From a virus: a stretch of DNA of 29,808 bases. The translations under genes and the position numbers were made by a program. Position 1 is the stretch's first letter. Every line of letters starts with the position of its first letter. The stretch is taken from positions 1 to 29,808 of the IMG/VR virus record IMGVR_UViG_3300023049_000054; one strand, written 5' to 3'. A model generated the notes under the pieces. It saw only the letters and a list, made by a program, of their open reading frames with translations, had not been told where the DNA came from and did not search any database. Shown here one piece after another: positions 4,402 through 25,165 of this stretch.

Positions 4402-4926
4402 TTGAGACCACCTAAACTAATGATTATAGGTCATGCCCGCCATGGAAAAGATACTGTTGCTGAGTTTATAGCTAGAAGTTATGCCCTTACCTACGAGTCT
4501 AGCAGTCACTTTGCTGCTCGAAAATTTATTTTTGAAAAACTCTGTCAACAACACAACTACCAAACGGTAGAAGAATGTCTAACCGACAGAGTTAATTTCA
4601 GAAAGATGTGGTATAATCTGATAGCTGATTATAATGCCAACGATCCTGCTCGCCTTGGCAAAGAGCTATTCGCAGAAAACGACATCTATTGCGGATTAAG
4701 GCACAAGCGCGAATTCCACAGCATGCGAAATCAACGTGTGTTTGATTATGTAATATGGGTCGATAGAAGAGATCATTTGCCTTCTGAAGACAAGACCAGC
4801 ATGTCGTTGGAACCGTGGATGGCCGATTATGTGATTGACAACAACGGACAGATAGAAGAAACCTATCAAAATACCAAAGACCTAATGGATAACCTGTTGC
4901 AAGAGCACCTAGACTACCGTCAATAA
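4402..4926 (+). CDS. Deoxynucleoside monophosphate kinase-like P-loop protein
   Basis: Residues 10-18, GHARHGKDT, form a Walker A loop of the type seen in phage dNMP kinases (T4 gene 1 family). These transfer phosphate from ATP to dNMPs to feed phage DNA synthesis. The protein is 174 residues, shorter than T4 gp1 (about 241), and the rest is not diagnostic; a related nucleotide kinase is possible. The start is TTG at 4402, six bases after a good AGGAG site; no ATG near the Walker loop fits the ribosome site. It has its own sigma-70-type promoter, fitting early expression, and an inverted repeat covers its ribosome site in read-through RNA. Its last 7 bases overlap the convergent HNH-like gene. 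Confidence 0.7.
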   Translation: MRPPKLMIIGHARHGKDTVAEFIARSYALTYESSSHFAARKFIFEKLCQQHNYQTVEECLTDRVNFRKMWYNLIADYNANDPARLGKELFAENDIYCGLRHKREFHSMRNQRVFDYVIWVDRRDHLPSEDKTSMSLEPWMADYVIDNNGQIEETYQNTKDLMDNLLQEHLDYRQ

Positions 4927-5261
4927 TCGGGCGTTAAATCGCCCTGTCGCCACTTTGAACCAGTCTTCTGTAGGATACGCTGGCAGTTGGCGCAAATAGT
5001 CTTTAGATTATTTGGACGGCAGTTATCAAGATTGCTGTCCAAGTGATAAACGTCAAACTGCTCAGGGTGCTTGCTGGCAAACCCGCACTTTTCACAAAAC
5101 TCTTTTTTTGTATATCCCCTATAAAACCATTTCGGCGCCCGCTCTGTGGTCACTTTTGCACGAGCACATCGTTCGCACCTTGAACGATAGAATGGTTTAT
5201 TATCCTTGTAGTAGTTGATAGCACACGGCTTCTGCCGGCATTGCTTGCACAAAGGTCTCAT
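4920..5261 (-). CDS. HNH-like zinc-finger protein
   Basis: A 113-residue protein with four CxxC pairs: C5/C8, C29/C32, C56/C59 and C90/C93. The second half has the spacing of an HNH nuclease core: CEKCG, then YHLD at 72-75, NNLK at 84-87 and CANC at 90-93. However, the His that normally follows the last CxxC is Gln94, so nuclease activity is uncertain. From memory, proteins with the same RPxCxxC start and a KWRQGDLTPDY-like end are widespread in marine T4-like phages, with Tyr-Val-Asp replacing His-Leu-Asp. That argues for a conserved phage function rather than a mobile endonuclease. It is convergent with the kinase gene. No ribosome site lies close to the ATG; a late motif sits just upstream. 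Confidence 0.7.
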   Translation of the reverse strand: MRPLCKQCRQKPCAINYYKDNKPFYRSRCERCARAKVTTERAPKWFYRGYTKKEFCEKCGFASKHPEQFDVYHLDSNLDNCRPNNLKTICANCQRILQKTGSKWRQGDLTPDY

Positions 5262-8730: not shown

Positions 8731-10296
8731 ATGATAGTTTGTGCAGTTTGCAACGAATCTTTTAAGAACATGATAACCTGGCGTCACCTTAAACATCACA
8801 ATTTAACATCCTCTGAATATAAAGAAAAATACGGTCCTGTAGTAAGTGAAGAGTTTCGTAAACTAAAGAGCAGCCAGTCATCCGGAGCAAGCAACCCTAA
8901 TTTCGGAAAAACTCATTCGCTTAAAGCAAAGAAAAAGATATCTGATGCAAACAAAGGCAAAACACCTTCTAACTACAACTCTGCAATGACAGACCAACAA
9001 AAGGAAAAGCTGTCAACAAAGGCAAAGTTGAGAAATGAAGAATGGCATAAATCAGGAACACATCCTCTTGTGGGCAGTAAACATACTGCCCAAACCAAAG
9101 AAAAGATAGCCCAAGCTAGAAAATATCAGATTATTACCAACGAACAAGTACAGAAGGCGTTGGCTACAAAAAAAGCCAACGGCACGGATTTGGCTTTTTT
9201 CCGGGGAAAAGTTCATTCAGAAGAATCTAAACAACAAATAGCAAAAACTTCTAAGTTAACAGCAGCAAGAAAACAGAAAGAACACGTCTTGCGACTAGAA
9301 AATATTCTTGAAGATTACAATTATCAGTTGATTGAATACACGTCTACTTTTACAACTTTAAAATGTACATTGTGCGGAACAGTTTTTTCAAGGACGTCGC
9401 AGTATTTGTCTAAGTCAAAAATTCGTAACGACTTCTGCTCAGCATGTTATCCTAAAACTGTAAGTACCAGTAAACTAGAAAATCAGCTAGCTGATTTTGT
9501 ATCTGCATTTGTAGACATTGAACGTAATAATAGAACTATTATATCGCCCCTGGAGTTAGACGTAGTAATACCCGGCCATAACCTTGCTATAGAATTCAAC
9601 GGGCTGTACTGGCACTCAACAGAGTTCAAAGAAGCCAAGTATCATCTTAGGAAATCCGAATTATGTGCAGAACAAGGAATTAAGCTAATTCATGTTTTCG
9701 AAGACGAATGGGTTAACACCCCAGAAATTGTTAAGTCGAGATTATTGAATCAGCTAGGCAAGTGTAGTCGCAAGGTGTATGCCAGGAAAACAAAGATTAG
9801 AGAACTAACTGCAAGAGACGCAAATCAGTTCCTTAAGATAAACCACATTCAGTCTACGGGCAGGTCGAACGTGCGACTGGGGCTATACCACAACGACACC
9901 TTAGTTTCTGTAATGACTTTCTTAAAAGGTGATGTTAGCAAACGAGTCGTAGGGTGGGAGCTGAACAGATTCTGCACCACATTGGATACAACTGTAGTAG
10001 GCGGAGCTAACAAGCTATTTAACTACTTTGTTAATACATACTCTCCTGAGCAAGTAACTTCTTTTGCGGATCGCCGATGGAGCAACTCAAGCGCATTTTA
10101 TTCACTTTTAGGATTTACTCTAGATGGTGTTACTCCAGTAAACTATTGGTATTTTGCACCAGGAGAAACGCAACGTAAGCATCGTTATTCTTTCAAAACA
10201 AATAAATATAATACTGAGAAAGAACAAATAGACTTCTACAACTTGAAGACTATATACGACTGCGGTAGTTATCGTTTTTTATGGTGTGCAAAATAA
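8731..10296 (+). CDS. Free-standing homing endonuclease (Vsr-like/EDxHD type with NUMOD3 repeats)
   Basis: A 521-residue protein. It starts with a CAVC...H zinc finger (C4, C7, H19-H23). Three NUMOD3-type DNA-binding units follow at about 55-77 (NPNFGKTHS...), 111-131 and 156-175, then a second zinc ribbon at C212/C215 and C236/C239. The nuclease core at about 274-330 has LELDVVIPGHNLAIEFNGLY, then WHS, and LIHVFEDEW. This is the Vsr-like fold of the EDxHD family (I-Bth0305I type). The C-terminal 170 residues (from ARKTKIREL) are a domain often attached to these enzymes. It sits between sheath and tube genes, typical of intergenic homing. It is preceded by a terminator, a lone TATAAT at 8700, and the ribosome site AAAGGA. 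Confidence 0.85.
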   Translation: MIVCAVCNESFKNMITWRHLKHHNLTSSEYKEKYGPVVSEEFRKLKSSQSSGASNPNFGKTHSLKAKKKISDANKGKTPSNYNSAMTDQQKEKLSTKAKLRNEEWHKSGTHPLVGSKHTAQTKEKIAQARKYQIITNEQVQKALATKKANGTDLAFFRGKVHSEESKQQIAKTSKLTAARKQKEHVLRLENILEDYNYQLIEYTSTFTTLKCTLCGTVFSRTSQYLSKSKIRNDFCSACYPKTVSTSKLENQLADFVSAFVDIERNNRTIISPLELDVVIPGHNLAIEFNGLYWHSTEFKEAKYHLRKSELCAEQGIKLIHVFEDEWVNTPEIVKSRLLNQLGKCSRKVYARKTKIRELTARDANQFLKINHIQSTGRSNVRLGLYHNDTLVSVMTFLKGDVSKRVVGWELNRFCTTLDTTVVGGANKLFNYFVNTYSPEQVTSFADRRWSNSSAFYSLLGFTLDGVTPVNYWYFAPGETQRKHRYSFKTNKYNTEKEQIDFYNLKTIYDCGSYRFLWCAK

Positions 10297-15455: not shown

Positions 15456-16274
15456 ATGATAAAGTCGTTAGACGGAGTAGTTACTAAGAATGCTGATCAA
15501 CAGGAAACCTACACTGAAACTCAAATAAAAAAGTTTCTTAAATGCGCAGATCCTGTTGATGGCTTTCTGTATTTCATCGAGCAATTTGTAAAGTATGTAA
15601 ACCCAGCTACTGGACCAGCTACTGGGGTACAGAACCTTAGACTTTACGATTTTCAAAAAGATCTACTAAAGAATATACACAACGAAAAAATTAGCGTAAA
15701 CATGCTACCCCGTCAGATGGGCAAGACGTTGTGCGCAGCGGCATACATTGCTTGGCGTTTGTTATTTTTAGAACACGAGAACATTGTCATTGCCAGTCAT
15801 CGGCTAATGGCTTCAGAACAAATACTCGAGACTGTTAGGCTCATTATAGAAAGATGCCCTAGCATGTTGAATCCTGGATTCAGTGTAAGCAACAAACGAT
15901 CACTTATACTTACTAACGGATCAAAGCTGCTAGCAAAAACTCTAGAGCCAGACAATCTTAGAGGTATGTCAATTAGTTTCTTGTTCGTTGACGAAGCAGG
16001 AGTTATGTCAGAGCACAAGATGCATGAATTCTTATCGTCAGCTTATCCTTCGATAGTTGGATCAAGAGGTAAGATTGCATTTACTTCTACAACAGGCGAA
16101 AAAGATTCCGGCTTTAACCTTCTATGGCAAAACGCACAAAATAAAAACTCTGGCTTTGCTAAGTTTAAAGCAGAATGGTTTGACCACCCTGAAAGAGACG
16201 AACAATGGAAAGATACTATTGTCAATCAAGTGGGCGAAGAAGTATTCAGAAAGGAGTACGAGTGCGAAATCTAA
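15456..16274 (+). CDS. Stand-alone terminase ATPase-domain paralogue (truncated gp17-like)
   Basis: A 272-residue protein that aligns with the extein sequence of the neighbouring gp17 from its first residues (SLDGV(V/L)TK, QQETYT) to the end of the ATPase domain. Walker A is PRQMGKT (85-91), Walker B is FLFVDE (175-180), and the coupling motif is TSTTG (210-214). All key ATPase residues are present, with no intein. It ends KEYECEI, two residues after the Cys that matches the third intein site in gp17 (REYG|CEF), so the whole nuclease domain is absent. Either it is a remnant of duplication or a kept accessory ATPase; intact motifs and frame favour the second. The ribosome site before ATG 15456 is weak. 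Confidence 0.85.
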   Translation: MIKSLDGVVTKNADQQETYTETQIKKFLKCADPVDGFLYFIEQFVKYVNPATGPATGVQNLRLYDFQKDLLKNIHNEKISVNMLPRQMGKTLCAAAYIAWRLLFLEHENIVIASHRLMASEQILETVRLIIERCPSMLNPGFSVSNKRSLILTNGSKLLAKTLEPDNLRGMSISFLFVDEAGVMSEHKMHEFLSSAYPSIVGSRGKIAFTSTTGEKDSGFNLLWQNAQNKNSGFAKFKAEWFDHPERDEQWKDTIVNQVGEEVFRKEYECEI

Positions 16275-16289
16275 GCATTCATTAATAAT

Positions 16290-17912
16290 ATGTCCAAGTC
16301 ATTAGACGGAGTACTTACAAAGAAAGCCAATCAACAAGAAACCTACACAGAGAAACAAATAGAACAACTTGTTAAATGTATGGACCCTGATAACGGCTAT
16401 TTGTACTTTGCTAAGAACTTTGCTTACATTCAGCACCCTGTAAGAGGCAAGCTGTTATTCGAACCATACGAATATCAAGAACGCCTAATGGCAAGTTATC
16501 ACAACTTCCGGTTTAACGTAAACATGCTGCCTAGGCAAACAGGCAAAGCCCTAGCGCTCGACACACCAATACCAACAAATTCCGGGTGGACTACAATGGG
16601 CGATATTAAAGTAGGTGATAAAATACTCGGACCTAACGGGAAGGAAGCCTCTGTTACATTTGCCACTCCGGTAATGTACAATCATACTTGTTATCAGGTC
16701 GAATTTGATAACGGAGAGAAGATTACAGCAGATGCAGAACATCTGTGGAACATTACATTAAGATCCTGGAATACTGGAGTAAAAACCTGGACCACGCAAC
16801 AGATTAAAGATTACATTGAATCAAAAAACACCTGTGTGTACGTAGAAGCAGCAAGCCCGATACAATTAGACGAAATAGAACTGCCTATAGATCCTTACGT
16901 GTTGGGTTTTTTGTTAGGTGACGGTGAGAGTGCCGCAGCACGTTATACCCAGTGTGTTGCTGATAATAAGGAAATTGTACCAGAGATATTAAGTAGAGGT
17001 GTTGACATCTCAAGATCTTATTCTAACGGGACTAGTGTTCAAAGTGAAAATAGGACTATTTACGGGTTACGCAGTAAACTAAACGAAAATGATTTGTTAA
17101 GAAATAAACATGTACCCGCGAAATATCTAAGAGCTAGTACTAATCAACGTTTAGAACTTTTGCAAGGTCTTATGGACTCAGCCGGCTCGATAGATAAAAG
17201 GTCCGGGCGATGTGAATTTTATCAAAAAAACTACAGACTAATAGAACAAGTACAAGACCTATTGTCATCATTAGGTATAAAAAATAGATGCGACCATAAG
17301 GTAATAAAAGGACAAACGTATTATACTATTGGATTTGCTACAACGAAATATAAAGTATTCAAGTTAACAAGGAAGTCTCAGTATCAAGATAACTGTAAAA
17401 GTCATCAAAAAAATACTCGACATTACATAAAGCGTATTTCGGCCACTGACTCAGTTCCAGTAAGGTGTATTCAAGTTGACACTACTGATCATTTGTTCCT
17501 CTGTGGAAAATCAATGATTCCAACTCATAACACCACCTGTGCTGCCGTATACCTTGCATGGTTTGCTATGTTCCATCCTGATCAAACTATTCTAATTGCA
17601 GCTCACAAGTACACAGGCGCCCAAGAAATTATGCAGCGAATTCGCTACATTTACGAATTGTGTCCTGACCATATACGTGCTGGTGTTGTCAATTACAACA
17701 AAGGTAGTATAGAATTCGAAAACGGTTCGCGTGTTGTAAGCTCAACTACTACAGGCAACACAGGCCGCGGCATGAGTATCTCGCTGCTATACTGCCTTGA
17801 CGGTGATACTACTAGAGTGCGAGTTCGTAATAAAAAAACACTAGAAGAGGAAGACGTGACATTAAAAGAACTTTATGTCAGGCTTCTCGATCCAAGAATT
17901 GTTCTCGCATGA
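16290..17912 (+). CDS. 17: Terminase large subunit gp17, part 1, with one full intein and an N-terminal split-intein half
   Basis: A 540-residue ORF. Residues 1-86 are extein ending at PRQTGK, the first half of Walker A. Residues 87-414 are a full intein. Residues 415-501 are extein again (TTCAAVYLAWFAMF... to RGMSISLLY). From Cys502 (CLDGDTT) to 540 is the N-half of a split intein, ending KELYVRLL plus seven residues. Splicing of the full intein rejoins GK with TT; the intein-free paralogue upstream reads GKTLCAAA at this place, which fixes the borders. Walker B is cut just before Asp-Glu, so this part alone cannot be an active ATPase. The stop overlaps the next ORF (ATGA). The ribosome site before ATG 16290 is weak. 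Confidence 0.92.
   Translation: MSKSLDGVLTKKANQQETYTEKQIEQLVKCMDPDNGYLYFAKNFAYIQHPVRGKLLFEPYEYQERLMASYHNFRFNVNMLPRQTGKALALDTPIPTNSGWTTMGDIKVGDKILGPNGKEASVTFATPVMYNHTCYQVEFDNGEKITADAEHLWNITLRSWNTGVKTWTTQQIKDYIESKNTCVYVEAASPIQLDEIELPIDPYVLGFLLGDGESAAARYTQCVADNKEIVPEILSRGVDISRSYSNGTSVQSENRTIYGLRSKLNENDLLRNKHVPAKYLRASTNQRLELLQGLMDSAGSIDKRSGRCEFYQKNYRLIEQVQDLLSSLGIKNRCDHKVIKGQTYYTIGFATTKYKVFKLTRKSQYQDNCKSHQKNTRHYIKRISATDSVPVRCIQVDTTDHLFLCGKSMIPTHNTTCAAVYLAWFAMFHPDQTILIAAHKYTGAQEIMQRIRYIYELCPDHIRAGVVNYNKGSIEFENGSRVVSSTTTGNTGRGMSISLLYCLDGDTTRVRVRNKKTLEEEDVTLKELYVRLLDPRIVLA
16548..17531 (+). mobile_element. Intein 1: class 3-type intein with LAGLIDADG endonuclease domain
   Basis: 328 residues inserted between Lys and Thr of Walker A. 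The first residue is Ala (ALALDTPIPT), so the usual Cys/Ser nucleophile is missing. The class 3 signature is present: Trp two residues after the block B His (AEHLW, W153 of the ORF), Cys at the block F position that is normally Asp (VRCIQVD, C393), and Thr before the final His-Asn (PTHN, T412). The next extein residue is Thr. The endonuclease domain has motifs VLGFLLGDG (204-212) and LLQGLMDSAG (290-299). In the second, the expected catalytic Asp is Ala298, so cleavage activity is doubtful while splicing residues look intact. Confidence 0.85.
17793..17912 (+). other. Split intein 2, N-terminal half (IntN2)
   Basis: Codes for 39 residues from CLDGDTT to the stop of part 1. It holds block A of a standard Cys1 intein and ends with an ELYVRLL helix like the LYKRLA end of the 25-residue N-half of the AceL-TerL intein (from memory). 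Block B and everything after it are on the next gene, 261 bases downstream. Confidence 0.85.
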
Positions 17913-18196
17913 CAAGTTTGCCTTTGATGCATGGATATAAAAATAGTGTTAGTCCGTTATTGATAGGAAGTGTAAGTAACCTACAGATGTTGCCGTGGCA
18001 AGACAACGTATCAAAGCACAGCAAGTCAGGAATATTGTTAGAAGAATTATTAATTCGTGCAAATTACACCAGCGATCAGTCGATCAAAGAATTTACTACT
18101 TTCTTAGAAATGATCAATAACGACATAAGAAGTGGCACTGTAGTCAGCGGCGCTGCACTAATAGAGAGGTTCAATGAATCAAAGTTTCGCACCTAA
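17909..18196 (+). CDS. Hypothetical small ORF inside the fractured terminase gene
   Basis: A 95-residue ORF in the gap between the two halves of split intein 2. I do not recognise it. It overlaps the stop of part 1 as ATGA and runs 23 bases into part 2. There are no zinc-finger, GIY-YIG, HNH, LAGLIDADG or Vsr-like residues, so it is not a visible endonuclease, although split-intein gaps often hold one. The last third (FTTFLEMINNDIRSG, then GAALIERFNESKF) looks like ordinary helical coding sequence. No ribosome site precedes its ATG, so translation would depend on coupling. It may be a real small gene, the remnant of a lost endonuclease, or simply a spacer that stayed open. Confidence 0.4.
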   Translation: MTSLPLMHGYKNSVSPLLIGSVSNLQMLPWQDNVSKHSKSGILLEELLIRANYTSDQSIKEFTTFLEMINNDIRSGTVVSGAALIERFNESKFRT

Positions 18197-18509
18197 CACA
18201 GAATACGAAATTCTTACACCTAACGGCTGGGAAGACTTCGAAGGAATTTTCTTAAACGAAAACGCCAATAAGGATTCTCGCAAGATTACATTTGACGATA
18301 ATAGCTTTGTTATAGCAACACTCGACCATCGATTCTATATTAATAATTCCGAAGTTAAAGTAAAAGACCTTGTGTTAGGTAATAAACTAGACTCTGAAGA
18401 CAATAGTAAGATAATAGTGTCACTAGAGGATGTAGAATTAGAGGACACTTACGAGATATTTAACGCAGAAAATCACGTAATACTTGCAAATAAGATTAAT
18501 TCGCATCAA
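18174..18509 (+). other. Split intein 2, C-terminal half (IntC2)
   Basis: 112 residues carrying blocks N2 to G: EILTPNGWEDFEGI (12-25), block B TLDH (49-52), block F DTYEIFNAENHVI, and the end KINSHQ before Cys+1. The last residue is Gln instead of Asn, a rare but known variant. No endonuclease domain. Confidence 0.85.
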
Positions 18510-18911
18510 TGCGACGAGTTCGCATTTGTACAACCTGGGATAGCAGACGAGTTTTGGACGTCGATATCACCTACGCTAGCAACAGGTGGTAGAGCAATTA
18601 TAACATCTACTCCAAACTCGGACGAAGACACGTTTGCGACAATCTGGAAAGACGCCGAGAAAAAGTTTGACGAACACGGCAATGAAACTGAATTAGGAAC
18701 GAATGGCTTCCATTCGTTTACAGTAGCCTGGGACGAGCACCCAGACAGAAACGACGAATGGAAGGTTGCTGAAATAGGTCGTATTGGTGAAGAACGCTTC
18801 CGTCGTGAGTATGGTTGTGTGACACGCAATACTATGATAACTTTGCAAGACGAAAACGGAAATGTATTTGACTTAGAAATAGGCAACTTGTACAATACCA
18901 TAGATGAATAA
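18174..18911 (+). CDS. 17: Terminase large subunit gp17, part 2, flanked by split-intein halves
   Basis: A 245-residue ORF with three sections. Residues 1-112 are the C-half of split intein 2, ending INSHQ. Residues 113-214 are extein: CDEFAFV completes Walker B (LLY|CDE), and AIITSTPNS (141-149) is the coupling motif, followed by WDEHPDRNDEWK and GEERFRREYG. Residues 215-245 (CVTRNTM... to NTIDE) are the N-half of split intein 3. The extein aligns with residues about 178-268 of the paralogue upstream. The ATG is five bases after GAGAGG. This IntC-extein-IntN order means the middle piece must be joined at both ends by trans-splicing. Confidence 0.9.
   Translation: MNQSFAPNTEYEILTPNGWEDFEGIFLNENANKDSRKITFDDNSFVIATLDHRFYINNSEVKVKDLVLGNKLDSEDNSKIIVSLEDVELEDTYEIFNAENHVILANKINSHQCDEFAFVQPGIADEFWTSISPTLATGGRAIITSTPNSDEDTFATIWKDAEKKFDEHGNETELGTNGFHSFTVAWDEHPDRNDEWKVAEIGRIGEERFRREYGCVTRNTMITLQDENGNVFDLEIGNLYNTIDE
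18816..18911 (+). other. Split intein 3, N-terminal half (IntN3)
   Basis: 31 residues from CVTRNTMITL to the stop of part 2, block A only. It resembles IntN2 in the ending (IGNLYNTI beside KELYVRLL) and is close in size to the 25-residue AceL-TerL N-half. Confidence 0.85.
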
Positions 18912-18987
18912 TAGCCCAAGAACAACTTAACGGAGAATACTGTGAGAGCTGCAATTTATATAGAGGTGGTAACAGAGTATTAAAAAA

Positions 18988-19329
18988 ATGACAAAGACAT
19001 TCAAAGAAAATTCGAAGAATTACAAAGTACTAACTCCTGATGGATTTCAGTCCTTTGCAGGTGTAGCATTGATGGGCGTAAAACCTACACTGCGCCTGGA
19101 CTTTGAGGGAGGAGCGTATGTAGAATGTACATACGATCATAAGTTCTACGTAACACTAACTGAACATAAAGAAGCAAGTCAATTAAATGTTGGCGACGCT
19201 GTGGTTACTTCAGAAGGCGACGTTAAGCTGTTGTCTAAGTCAGACACTGGAATGTCCGAACCGGTATATGATTTAATCGAAGTAGAAAACGGCCACCGGT
19301 ATTTTACTAACAAGGTACTAAGCTCTAAC
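18988..19329 (+). other. Split intein 3, C-terminal half (IntC3)
   Basis: 114 residues: YKVLTPDGFQSFAGV (12-26), block B TYDH (48-51), block F VYDLIEVENGHRYFTN (93-108), end VLSSN before Cys+1. The penultimate residue is Ser where most inteins have His. Confidence 0.85.
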
Positions 19330-20079
19330 TGCGAATTCTTAGTATTTGACGAAACGTTAATTAATTCCATCAAACTATCAACTATGGAGGGGATGACTCC
19401 GACCCTTAACATGGGGCAAACCCGGTGGTATAAGAAGCCTGAGGCAGGTTATACCTATGCTGTTGCACTTGACCCTAGTATGGGCACTGGTGGCGACAAT
19501 GCTGCTATACAGGTTATAGAATTACCTAGTTACAAACAAGTAGCAGAATGGCAGCACAATCAAACGTCAATTCCTGGACAAATTCGCGTACTTAAAGATA
19601 TCAACAATTATATACAAGAGACTATTAAGCAACCAAACTCTATTTACTGGAGTGTAGAAAATAACGGTATTGGCGAAGCTGCATTATTAGTAATACAAGA
19701 TTTTGGTGAAGAGAATATTCCCGGCCTGTTTATATCAGAACCGATTCGCAAAGGCCACGTTAGAAAATTCCGTAAAGGGTTTAACACTACCCACAGTGCT
19801 AAGATTACAGCATGCAGTAGACTTAAAACAATGGTAGAAAACGACAAAATGAAAATTTACTCCAAACCGTTAATATCAGAACTCAAAGGGTTCATTGCAA
19901 CTGGTTCTAGTTACCAAGCAAAATCCGGAGTCTCAGACGATCTAATATCTGCAATTTTGTTAACTATACGAATGATGGCGATACTCAAAGATTGGGACCC
20001 TAAGATTTACAATACATTTACGCAGGCTGATGATGATGACTATGATCCGCCGATGCCAATCTTTATGACACGGAACTGA
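18988..20079 (+). CDS. 17: Terminase large subunit gp17, part 3, nuclease domain behind a split-intein half
   Basis: A 363-residue ORF. Residues 1-114 are the C-half of split intein 3. From Cys115 (CEFLVFDETLIN) comes the C-terminal extein of 249 residues with the RNase H-like nuclease of gp17: ALDPSMGTGGD (Asp162), VENNGIGEA (Glu224) and GVSDDLISA (Asp317/318), matching the T4 triad Asp401/Glu458/Asp542. It cuts concatemers to make the ends of packaged DNA. Fully spliced gp17 would have 86+87+102+249 = 524 residues. A 76-base gap separates it from part 2, and no good ribosome site is near its ATG, which follows an A run. The stop codon TGA begins the next late promoter motif. Confidence 0.92.
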   Translation: MTKTFKENSKNYKVLTPDGFQSFAGVALMGVKPTLRLDFEGGAYVECTYDHKFYVTLTEHKEASQLNVGDAVVTSEGDVKLLSKSDTGMSEPVYDLIEVENGHRYFTNKVLSSNCEFLVFDETLINSIKLSTMEGMTPTLNMGQTRWYKKPEAGYTYAVALDPSMGTGGDNAAIQVIELPSYKQVAEWQHNQTSIPGQIRVLKDINNYIQETIKQPNSIYWSVENNGIGEAALLVIQDFGEENIPGLFISEPIRKGHVRKFRKGFNTTHSAKITACSRLKTMVENDKMKIYSKPLISELKGFIATGSSYQAKSGVSDDLISAILLTIRMMAILKDWDPKIYNTFTQADDDDYDPPMPIFMTRN

Positions 20080-24448: not shown

Positions 24449-25165
24449 ACTACATTTGTGCTTTAATCGACCCAAGATCGGACTTACCTTTTACATCGGC
24501 AAGGGACTAATCGTAAACTCTAGACACCTAGACCATTTTAAGGAAAACGAGTCTCGTACCTTAAATAAACACAAATTTTATAAAATAAGATTTTTACAGA
24601 ATCAAGGATACGTAGTTCCTGTAATAGTGCTGTTAGATAATATATTAGACGAACACGAAGCTTACAATAAAGAAACCGAGTTCGTAAAGTTTTACGGAAG
24701 AAAAACATCGACAAAAACGGAATACTATCTAATATATGCCTTGACAACAGACCCCCTAATCATAAAGGCAGAAAACAATCTTTAGAACACAAACAGAAGA
24801 GAATAGAAAGTTATAAGCGTACTGTTAAGACTCACGGCAAGAAGATGCCCGAGTATTATAAAAAAGAATTATCCGAAAGAATGAAAGGTCCAAAAAATCC
24901 GTTTTTTGGGAGAAAGCATACTAAAGAATTTAAGGCTGTTCATTCTAAAAGGATGAAAGGCAACAAAAACAACGGCAAGGTTTATAAATTCATTGATTCT
25001 GATAATAAAGAATACATCGTAGAAGGATCGTTTTATGAATTTTGTAAAGTGCACAATCTAGCAATTTCAACAATGGAAAAAAATCTATACAACGGAACAA
25101 TTAGTAAAGTAGGAGCCTGTAAAGGGTGGAAAGTTGTTAAGTTGTCTGAGAGTACTTTTCTATAA
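24445..25165 (+). pseudogene. GIY-YIG homing endonuclease, broken by two frameshifts
   Basis: The reading starts MYYICALIDPRSDLPF after a perfect AGGAGG, then must slip by -1 at a T4 run (24489-24492) to continue as FYIGKG, the second half of the GIY-YIG motif. It must slip again by -1 at an A5 run (24713-24717) to pass from KTSTK into GILSNICLDN. The third frame then runs to TAA at 25163-25165. Restored, the protein is 240 residues: a GIY-YIG nuclease, NUMOD3 units (NHKGRKQSLEHKQKR near 24749, NPFFGRKHTKEFK near 24896), and a NUMOD1-like end (KVYKFID... to GCKGWKV-type). Both breaks fit loss of one base from a homopolymer, so recent decay or sequencing error are both possible. More A/T-rich than its neighbours, as expected for an inserted element. 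Confidence 0.8.

What the first reader, a model, noticed from the sequence alone, without database searches (positions are those of the whole stretch)
18174..18911. Middle terminase piece has an IntC-extein-IntN order that could cyclise if the two split inteins cross-react
Part 2 carries the C-half of intein 2 at its front and the N-half of intein 3 at its back. This permuted order is the one that yields circular proteins when the halves match. Both inteins belong to the same atypical family and both use Cys+1, so IntN2 with IntC3 could also join part 1 directly to part 3 and skip the middle. The pair should therefore be orthogonal, or wrong products should be common.
Basis: inference. Interest (0 to 1): 0.72.

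Follow-up and report, generated by a model that had tools for sequence, protein, structure and literature searches.

The report
Three-piece terminase rejoined by split inteins
This virus encodes its DNA-packaging motor protein as three separate chains that two self-cutting protein splicers must stitch together in the right order, and the evidence favours each splicer ignoring the other's half, so the middle chain probably does not close on itself into a circle.

Summary
ORF 18174-18911 is IntC2 (112 aa), a 102-aa terminase extein and IntN3 (31 aa); both splice sites use Cys+1. Any middle piece between two split inteins must have this order, so it is not itself a sign of cyclisation.

About 240 related loci show how the arrangement behaves. 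Fifteen distinct genomes, this one included, carry the same IntC2-extein-IntN3 middle piece; two also split the gene at a third site. A cultured phage (Salicola SCTP-2) spreads its terminase over three distant genes, one of them IntC-extein-IntN.

The two inteins belong to different site-specific families. In the window IntN2 and IntN3 are 16% identical, the IntC halves about 28-33%; charges oppose the cyclising pair. AlphaFold gives cognate IntN2 in a natural cis intein pLDDT 95, but IntN3 next to IntC2 only 45-68. I conclude the pairs are mostly orthogonal; circular or skipped products are possible but unsupported. No splicing was tested.

Unexpectedly, one IntN2 lineage pairs with two IntC families sharing only their first ~25 residues. 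This points to IntN plus the IntC head as the pairing module.

The parts
16290..16547 (+). Terminase extein 1a (86 aa, up to Walker A RQTGK), start of part 1
   Evidence: homology to intein-free TerL
16548..17531 (+). Contiguous intein 1 (328 aa, Ala1, ends HN|Thr, LAGLIDADG domain), inside part 1
   Evidence: Pfam LAGLIDADG_3 E=6.7e-10
17532..17792 (+). Terminase extein 1b (87 aa, ends SLLY)
17793..17909 (+). IntN2 (39 aa), end of part 1; stop 17910-17912
   Evidence: same half in more than 40 loci
17909..18196 (+). ORF M: C-terminal remnant (95 aa) of the HNH-like endonuclease gene that sits between IntN2 and IntC2 in relatives; the HHIDH part is missing; overlaps the start of IntC2
   Evidence: full-length version L007 5097-6023 and L052 5109-6023
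18174..18509 (+). IntC2 (112 aa, ends in Gln: SHQ|C)
   Evidence: model matches Cat intein 6DSL, Z 11.4, 105 aligned, 1.8 A
18510..18815 (+). Terminase extein 2 (102 aa, Walker B CDEFAF to ...FRREYG)
18816..18908 (+). IntN3 (31 aa); stop 18909-18911
   Evidence: same half in relatives
18924..18965 (+). Remnant of the first codons of the site-3 endonuclease gene (NLTENTVRAAIYIE; L007 has NDLTENTVSVAIYVE)
   Evidence: sequence read against L007 6739-7719, (by eye)
18988..19329 (+). IntC3 (114 aa, ends SSN|C), start of part 3
   Evidence: PDB 6DSL CatC E=1.2e-10
19330..20076 (+). Terminase extein 3 (249 aa, linker and RNase H-like nuclease); stop 20077-20079
   Evidence: Pfam Terminase_6C E=1.2e-12

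Best explanation
The large terminase is made as three polypeptides and rebuilt by two protein trans-splicing reactions: IntN2 with IntC2 joins parts 1 and 2 at Walker B, and IntN3 with IntC3 joins parts 2 and 3 at the ATPase/nuclease boundary; a third, contiguous intein leaves part 1 in cis. The two split inteins come from different site-specific families and are largely orthogonal, so part 2 neither cyclises to a significant degree nor is skipped. Pairing is probably read from IntN together with the first ~25 residues of IntC (the head), while the rest of IntC is a generic catalytic body. Shown here: the anatomy, the homology, the separate families and the recurrence. Inferred: that splicing happens, that it is orthogonal, and that the head sets the pairing.
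For: Anatomy exact. Recurrence: 15 distinct genomes with split site 2 plus split site 3, in all four combinations of IntC families 2a/2b with 3a/3b. Separate families: IntC groups 2a, 2b, 3a, 3b each form one side of a branch. IntN identity across sites 20-24%, 16% in the window, against the 40-50% of published cross-reacting short IntNs (PMC3443213). AlphaFold on similar alignments: natural cis intein 2 has IntN2 at pLDDT 95-96 and IntC2 around 91 (full intein fold, Z 19.4); in part 2 IntN3 has 45-68 and IntC2 around 76, although IntN3 had more alignment rows than IntN2. Window charges: IntN2 residues 1-16 +3 against IntC2 head -5; IntN3 -5 against IntC2 -13. Head as pairing module: IntN2 of L110 and L052 is identical, but L052 has IntC2a and L110 IntC2b; 2a/2b identity is 62% in the head and 28% in the body; IntN2 does not follow the IntC family (10 label changes on the IntN2 tree, 1 on the body tree).
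Against: No splicing was measured. The AlphaFold comparison is not a binding assay and the two chains differ in topology (permuted versus cis); a cognate permuted control was not available. Charge does not explain site 3: IntN3 (-5) and IntC3 (-4) are both acidic, and family 3b lacks the pattern. Short-IntN inteins are the class in which cross-reaction is reported (PMC3443213; PMC7090010), and GOS-TerL and AceL-TerL IntNs are interchangeable (PMC11766414). That IntN2 serves two IntC families with 28% identical bodies shows that body divergence alone is no barrier. The IntN2 tree rests on only ~36 columns.
Confidence: 0.7

Rival explanations
1. The halves cross-react appreciably: part 2 cyclises to a 102-residue ring (favoured by being intramolecular) and some part 1 joins part 3 to give a 422-aa dead product; the phage tolerates the loss.
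For: Topology is right; both sites have Cys+1 and an acidic +2; short-IntN inteins can cross-react (PMC3443213; PMC7090010); IntN2 works with two IntC families.
Against: IntN2/IntN3 16% identical, cross-site heads 33-37%; like charges for IntN3 and IntC2; IntN3 not confidently placed beside IntC2; arrangement kept in at least 15 genomes.
Confidence: 0.15
2. The pieces are not spliced: this terL copy is decayed, or the parts work as a non-covalent complex, and another terminase elsewhere in the genome or the ATPase-only paralog at 15456-16274 does the work.
For: The record is a 29.8-kb fragment, so another terL could lie outside it; both endonuclease genes are reduced to remnants; a paralogous ATPase ORF lies directly upstream.
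Against: All three parts have open frames, intact Walker A/B and nuclease domain, intact splice-junction residues, and up to 94% identity to intein-free relatives; the paralog lacks a nuclease domain and also occurs beside an uninterrupted terL in L054.
Confidence: 0.1
3. Cross-reaction is regulatory: cyclised or skipped products limit active terminase until packaging is needed.
For: Only the permuted topology, which does not exclude it.
Against: No conserved feature points to it; intein-free and single-intein relatives with closely related terminases are common.
Confidence: 0.03

Closest known systems
Atypically split TerL inteins (AceL-TerL, GOS-TerL and the engineered Cat, PDB 6DSL)
   Same: Very short IntN and ~105-115 aa IntC, in large terminase genes, Cys+1; intein 3 is a sequence relative of CatC (E=1.2e-10); IntC2 gives 6DSL as best structural match
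   Different: Here two such inteins from two different families sit in one gene, giving a middle piece with an intein half at each end; intein 2 ends in Gln and sits at Walker B
Fractured genes (split intein with a free-standing endonuclease gene between the halves; Dassa et al. 2009, known to me only through citations)
   Same: Relatives have an endonuclease-like gene between the halves at both sites
   Different: In the window both endonuclease genes are reduced to remnants; the gene is fractured twice, and three times in L047 and L093
Split-intein cyclisation constructs (SICLOPPS type; from general knowledge)
   Same: IntC-extein-IntN order on one chain
   Different: There the halves match each other; here they belong to two different inteins
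Ssp DnaX S1 split intein (PMC3443213)
   Same: Short IntN, large IntC, documented IntN cross-reaction
   Different: Engineered split; its cross-reacting IntNs are 40-50% identical, against 16% here

Membership tests
Atypically split TerL inteins | IntN of about 25-40 aa and IntC of about 105-115 aa on separate chains | tested here: met
   39/112 aa and 31/114 aa
Atypically split TerL inteins | Insertion in a large terminase gene, Cys1 and Cys+1 | tested here: met
Atypically split TerL inteins | Sequence relation to AceL/GOS/Cat: intein 3 | tested here: met
   CatC E=1.2e-10
Atypically split TerL inteins | Sequence relation to AceL/GOS/Cat: intein 2 | tested here: inconclusive
   gp41-1 0.005 and CatC 0.027 only; structural best match is 6DSL
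Atypically split TerL inteins | Intein (HINT) fold | tested here: met
   cis relative of intein 2 matches whole inteins over 1-165, Z up to 19.4; part 2 matches over IntC2
Atypically split TerL inteins | Trans-splicing activity | not testable with these tools
   needs expression
Fractured genes | Endonuclease gene between the intein halves | tested here: inconclusive
   full-length in relatives; only remnants in the window
Self-cyclising IntC-extein-IntN proteins | IntC and IntN on the chain are matching halves of one intein | tested here: not met
   IntC2 and IntN3 belong to different families; cognate partners lie on parts 1 and 3

The most novel reading that the evidence does not exclude
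IntN3 and IntC2 do react within part 2, so that a natural circular 102-residue terminase fragment is made in infected cells, by accident or as control of packaging.
Probability: 0.1. Interest if true: 0.75.

Novelty: new variant of a known kind. Interest (0 to 1): 0.56.

Why it matters
Multi-piece protein ligation with orthogonal split inteins is an engineering goal; here nature appears to have done it repeatedly in one essential gene, with two and in some genomes three short-IntN split inteins. The families give ready orthogonality sets, and the natural re-pairing of one IntN2 lineage with two IntC families marks where specificity is probably written (IntN plus IntC head). Salicola phage SCTP-2, a culturable phage with terL spread over three distant genes, would make the question testable during infection.

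Tried and rejected
Net charge of whole halves as the sole explanation of orthogonality: fits intein 2 and the cyclising pair but not site 3. IntC2b as a chimera with an intein-3 body: its body is no closer to site-3 families (25-29%) than to 2a (28%), and 2a and 2b group together on the full tree at moderate support. IntN identities from end-gap-free alignment were misaligned for cross-site pairs and replaced by anchored ones. MAFFT alignments mixing N-only and C-only fragments (A2-A5) came out misaligned and were not folded. Pfam names no family for the 2a or 2b endonucleases of L007, L052 and L110, only a sub-threshold GmrSD_C (HNH) hit for the Salicola homologue; the HNH and Vsr-like labels are by eye. 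Dassa et al. 2009 is not in the library, so an earlier report of a doubly fractured terL cannot be excluded; paper searches for two split inteins in one gene gave nothing relevant.

Full report
Anatomy. The window holds a T4-type large terminase in three ORFs. Part 1 (16290-17912) has extein 1a, a contiguous intein 1, extein 1b and IntN2. Part 2 (18174-18911) has IntC2, a 102-aa extein and IntN3. Part 3 (18988-20079) has IntC3 and the linker/nuclease extein. Spliced in order they give 524 aa; joining part 1 straight to part 3 would give 422 aa and lose Walker B. Intein-free relatives are continuous across all three sites, so the junctions are real. Intein 1 (Ala1, HN|Thr+1, with VRC and TADAEHLW motifs) reads like a class 3 intein and so should not take part in the cross-talk question (sequence and general knowledge, not tested).

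What the permuted order means. Any piece lying between two split inteins has IntC at its front and IntN at its back, so the order is a consequence of double splitting and not a sign of cyclisation. Cyclisation needs IntN3 to work with IntC2; skipping needs IntN2 to work with IntC3. The extein residues do not prevent either (Cys+1, then Asp or Glu, at both sites).

How common it is. IMG/VR scans gave about 240 loci. At the Walker B site the intein is usually split, but contiguous in L014/L016 and L040/L042/L043. Two IntC families occur there: 2a (ends HQ|C, as in the window) and 2b (ends ITKN|C). Two more occur at the ATPase/nuclease site: 3a (SSN|C, as in the window) and 3b. Fifteen distinct genomes, the window included, combine a split site 2 with a split site 3, and all four family combinations exist. 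L047 and L093 also have a split intein at the Walker A site, so their terL is in four pieces with two permuted middle pieces. Some loci have site 3 alone; there the residue at the site-2 +1 position is often Ala or Leu instead of Cys.

A cultured case. In Salicola phage SCTP-2 (complete genome, 440 kb) extein 1a with IntN1 lies at 429.5 kb on the minus strand, gene 267 at 256.4-257.3 kb on the plus strand is IntC1-extein-IntN2, and gene 224 at 216-218 kb on the minus strand starts with IntC2. A free-standing IntC-extein-IntN gene therefore exists in a phage that can be grown.

Are the two pairs orthogonal? IntN2 and IntN3 are 16% identical in the window, the lowest of 14 genomes measured, and 20-24% between sites in general; the IntCs are about 28-33%. 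Each IntC family forms one side of a branch, though support is moderate on so short an alignment. Published cross-reacting short IntNs are 40-50% identical (PMC3443213). In the window IntN2 residues 1-16 carry +3 and face an IntC2 head of -5, whereas IntN3 (-5) would face IntC2 (-13). AlphaFold gave the natural cis intein 2 of L014 pLDDT 95-96 over IntN2 and around 91 over IntC2, a complete intein fold (Z 19.4); for part 2 it gave IntN3 45-68 and IntC2 around 76, and the structural match covered only IntC2. This agrees with IntC2 lacking its partner in part 2, but it is not a binding assay and the topologies differ.

Where specificity may lie. IntN2 sequences paired with IntC2a and with IntC2b are as similar to each other (66%) as within either set (67-68%); L110 and L052 have identical IntN2 but IntC2b and IntC2a respectively. 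On the IntN2 tree the IntC family label changes 10 times, on the body tree once. IntC2a and IntC2b share 62% of head residues 8-25 but only 28% of the body, a level seen between families of different sites (21-32%); heads of site-2 and site-3 families share 33-37%. DNA comparison of L052 with L110 shows extein 1, IntN2 and the first part of the endonuclease gene alike (79%), then a break, with similarity returning at the first base of extein 2: the second half of the endonuclease gene and the whole IntC were exchanged together while IntN was kept. The simplest reading is that IntN plus the IntC head is the pairing module. It also warns that IntC body divergence alone does not ensure orthogonality.

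State of the elements here. In relatives a ~305-aa HNH-like endonuclease gene lies between IntN2 and IntC2 and a ~326-aa endonuclease-like gene between IntN3 and IntC3. In the window only the C-terminal 95 codons of the first (ORF M, overlapping the IntC2 start) and some 14-20 codons of the second remain. The elements have lost mobility while terL remains in three pieces.

Verdict. Observation confirmed; interpretation partly supported. The most likely mechanism is ordered three-piece trans-splicing by two largely orthogonal split inteins. Circular or skipped products remain possible (about 0.1-0.15) and are easy to test. Novelty: a new variant of the known split-intein, fractured-gene kind; an earlier report of doubly fractured terL could not be ruled out with the papers at hand.

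Noticed in passing
window 15456-16274: ATPase-only paralog of the large terminase (272 aa, 39% identical) directly upstream, ending ...EYECEI* at the ATPase/nuclease boundary, i.e. where intein 3 sits in terL; 97-98% conserved in L011, L012, L054 and 47% in L055, including next to an uninterrupted terL.
   Followed up: partly
L047 382-5432; L093 2107-7086: terL in four pieces with three short-IntN split inteins (Walker A, Walker B, ATPase/nuclease boundary).
   Followed up: partly
MF360958.1 429488-429748, 256428-257321, 215993-218077 (L246, L247, L095): Salicola phage SCTP-2 encodes terL in three genes far apart and on both strands; gene 224 also holds a further contiguous intein in extein 2.
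   Followed up: partly
L052 versus L110: Endonuclease nuclease half and whole IntC2 exchanged as a unit (HNH-like with IntC2a, Vsr-like with IntC2b, labels by eye), with IntN2 kept.
   Followed up: partly
L019, L025, L049, L111, L117 ends of part 1: IntN2 reading frames run on into a copy of the extein 2 start (DEFAFV or DEFGFV) before the stop, a possible footprint of how the gene was fractured.
   Followed up: no
window 16548-17531: Contiguous intein 1 at Walker A looks like class 3 (Ala1, Thr+1, Cys in the block F position) with a LAGLIDADG domain.
   Followed up: no
window 8731-10296, 4920-5261, 24456-24785: Further endonuclease-like genes (NUMOD3/MTES_1575, HNH_3, GIY-YIG), so the region is rich in homing-type genes.
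   Followed up: no
L096 628-3778 (Vibrio phage 1.244.A): Site-3 split intein whose IntN is followed in frame by a long extension that reads like a GIY-YIG endonuclease.
   Followed up: no
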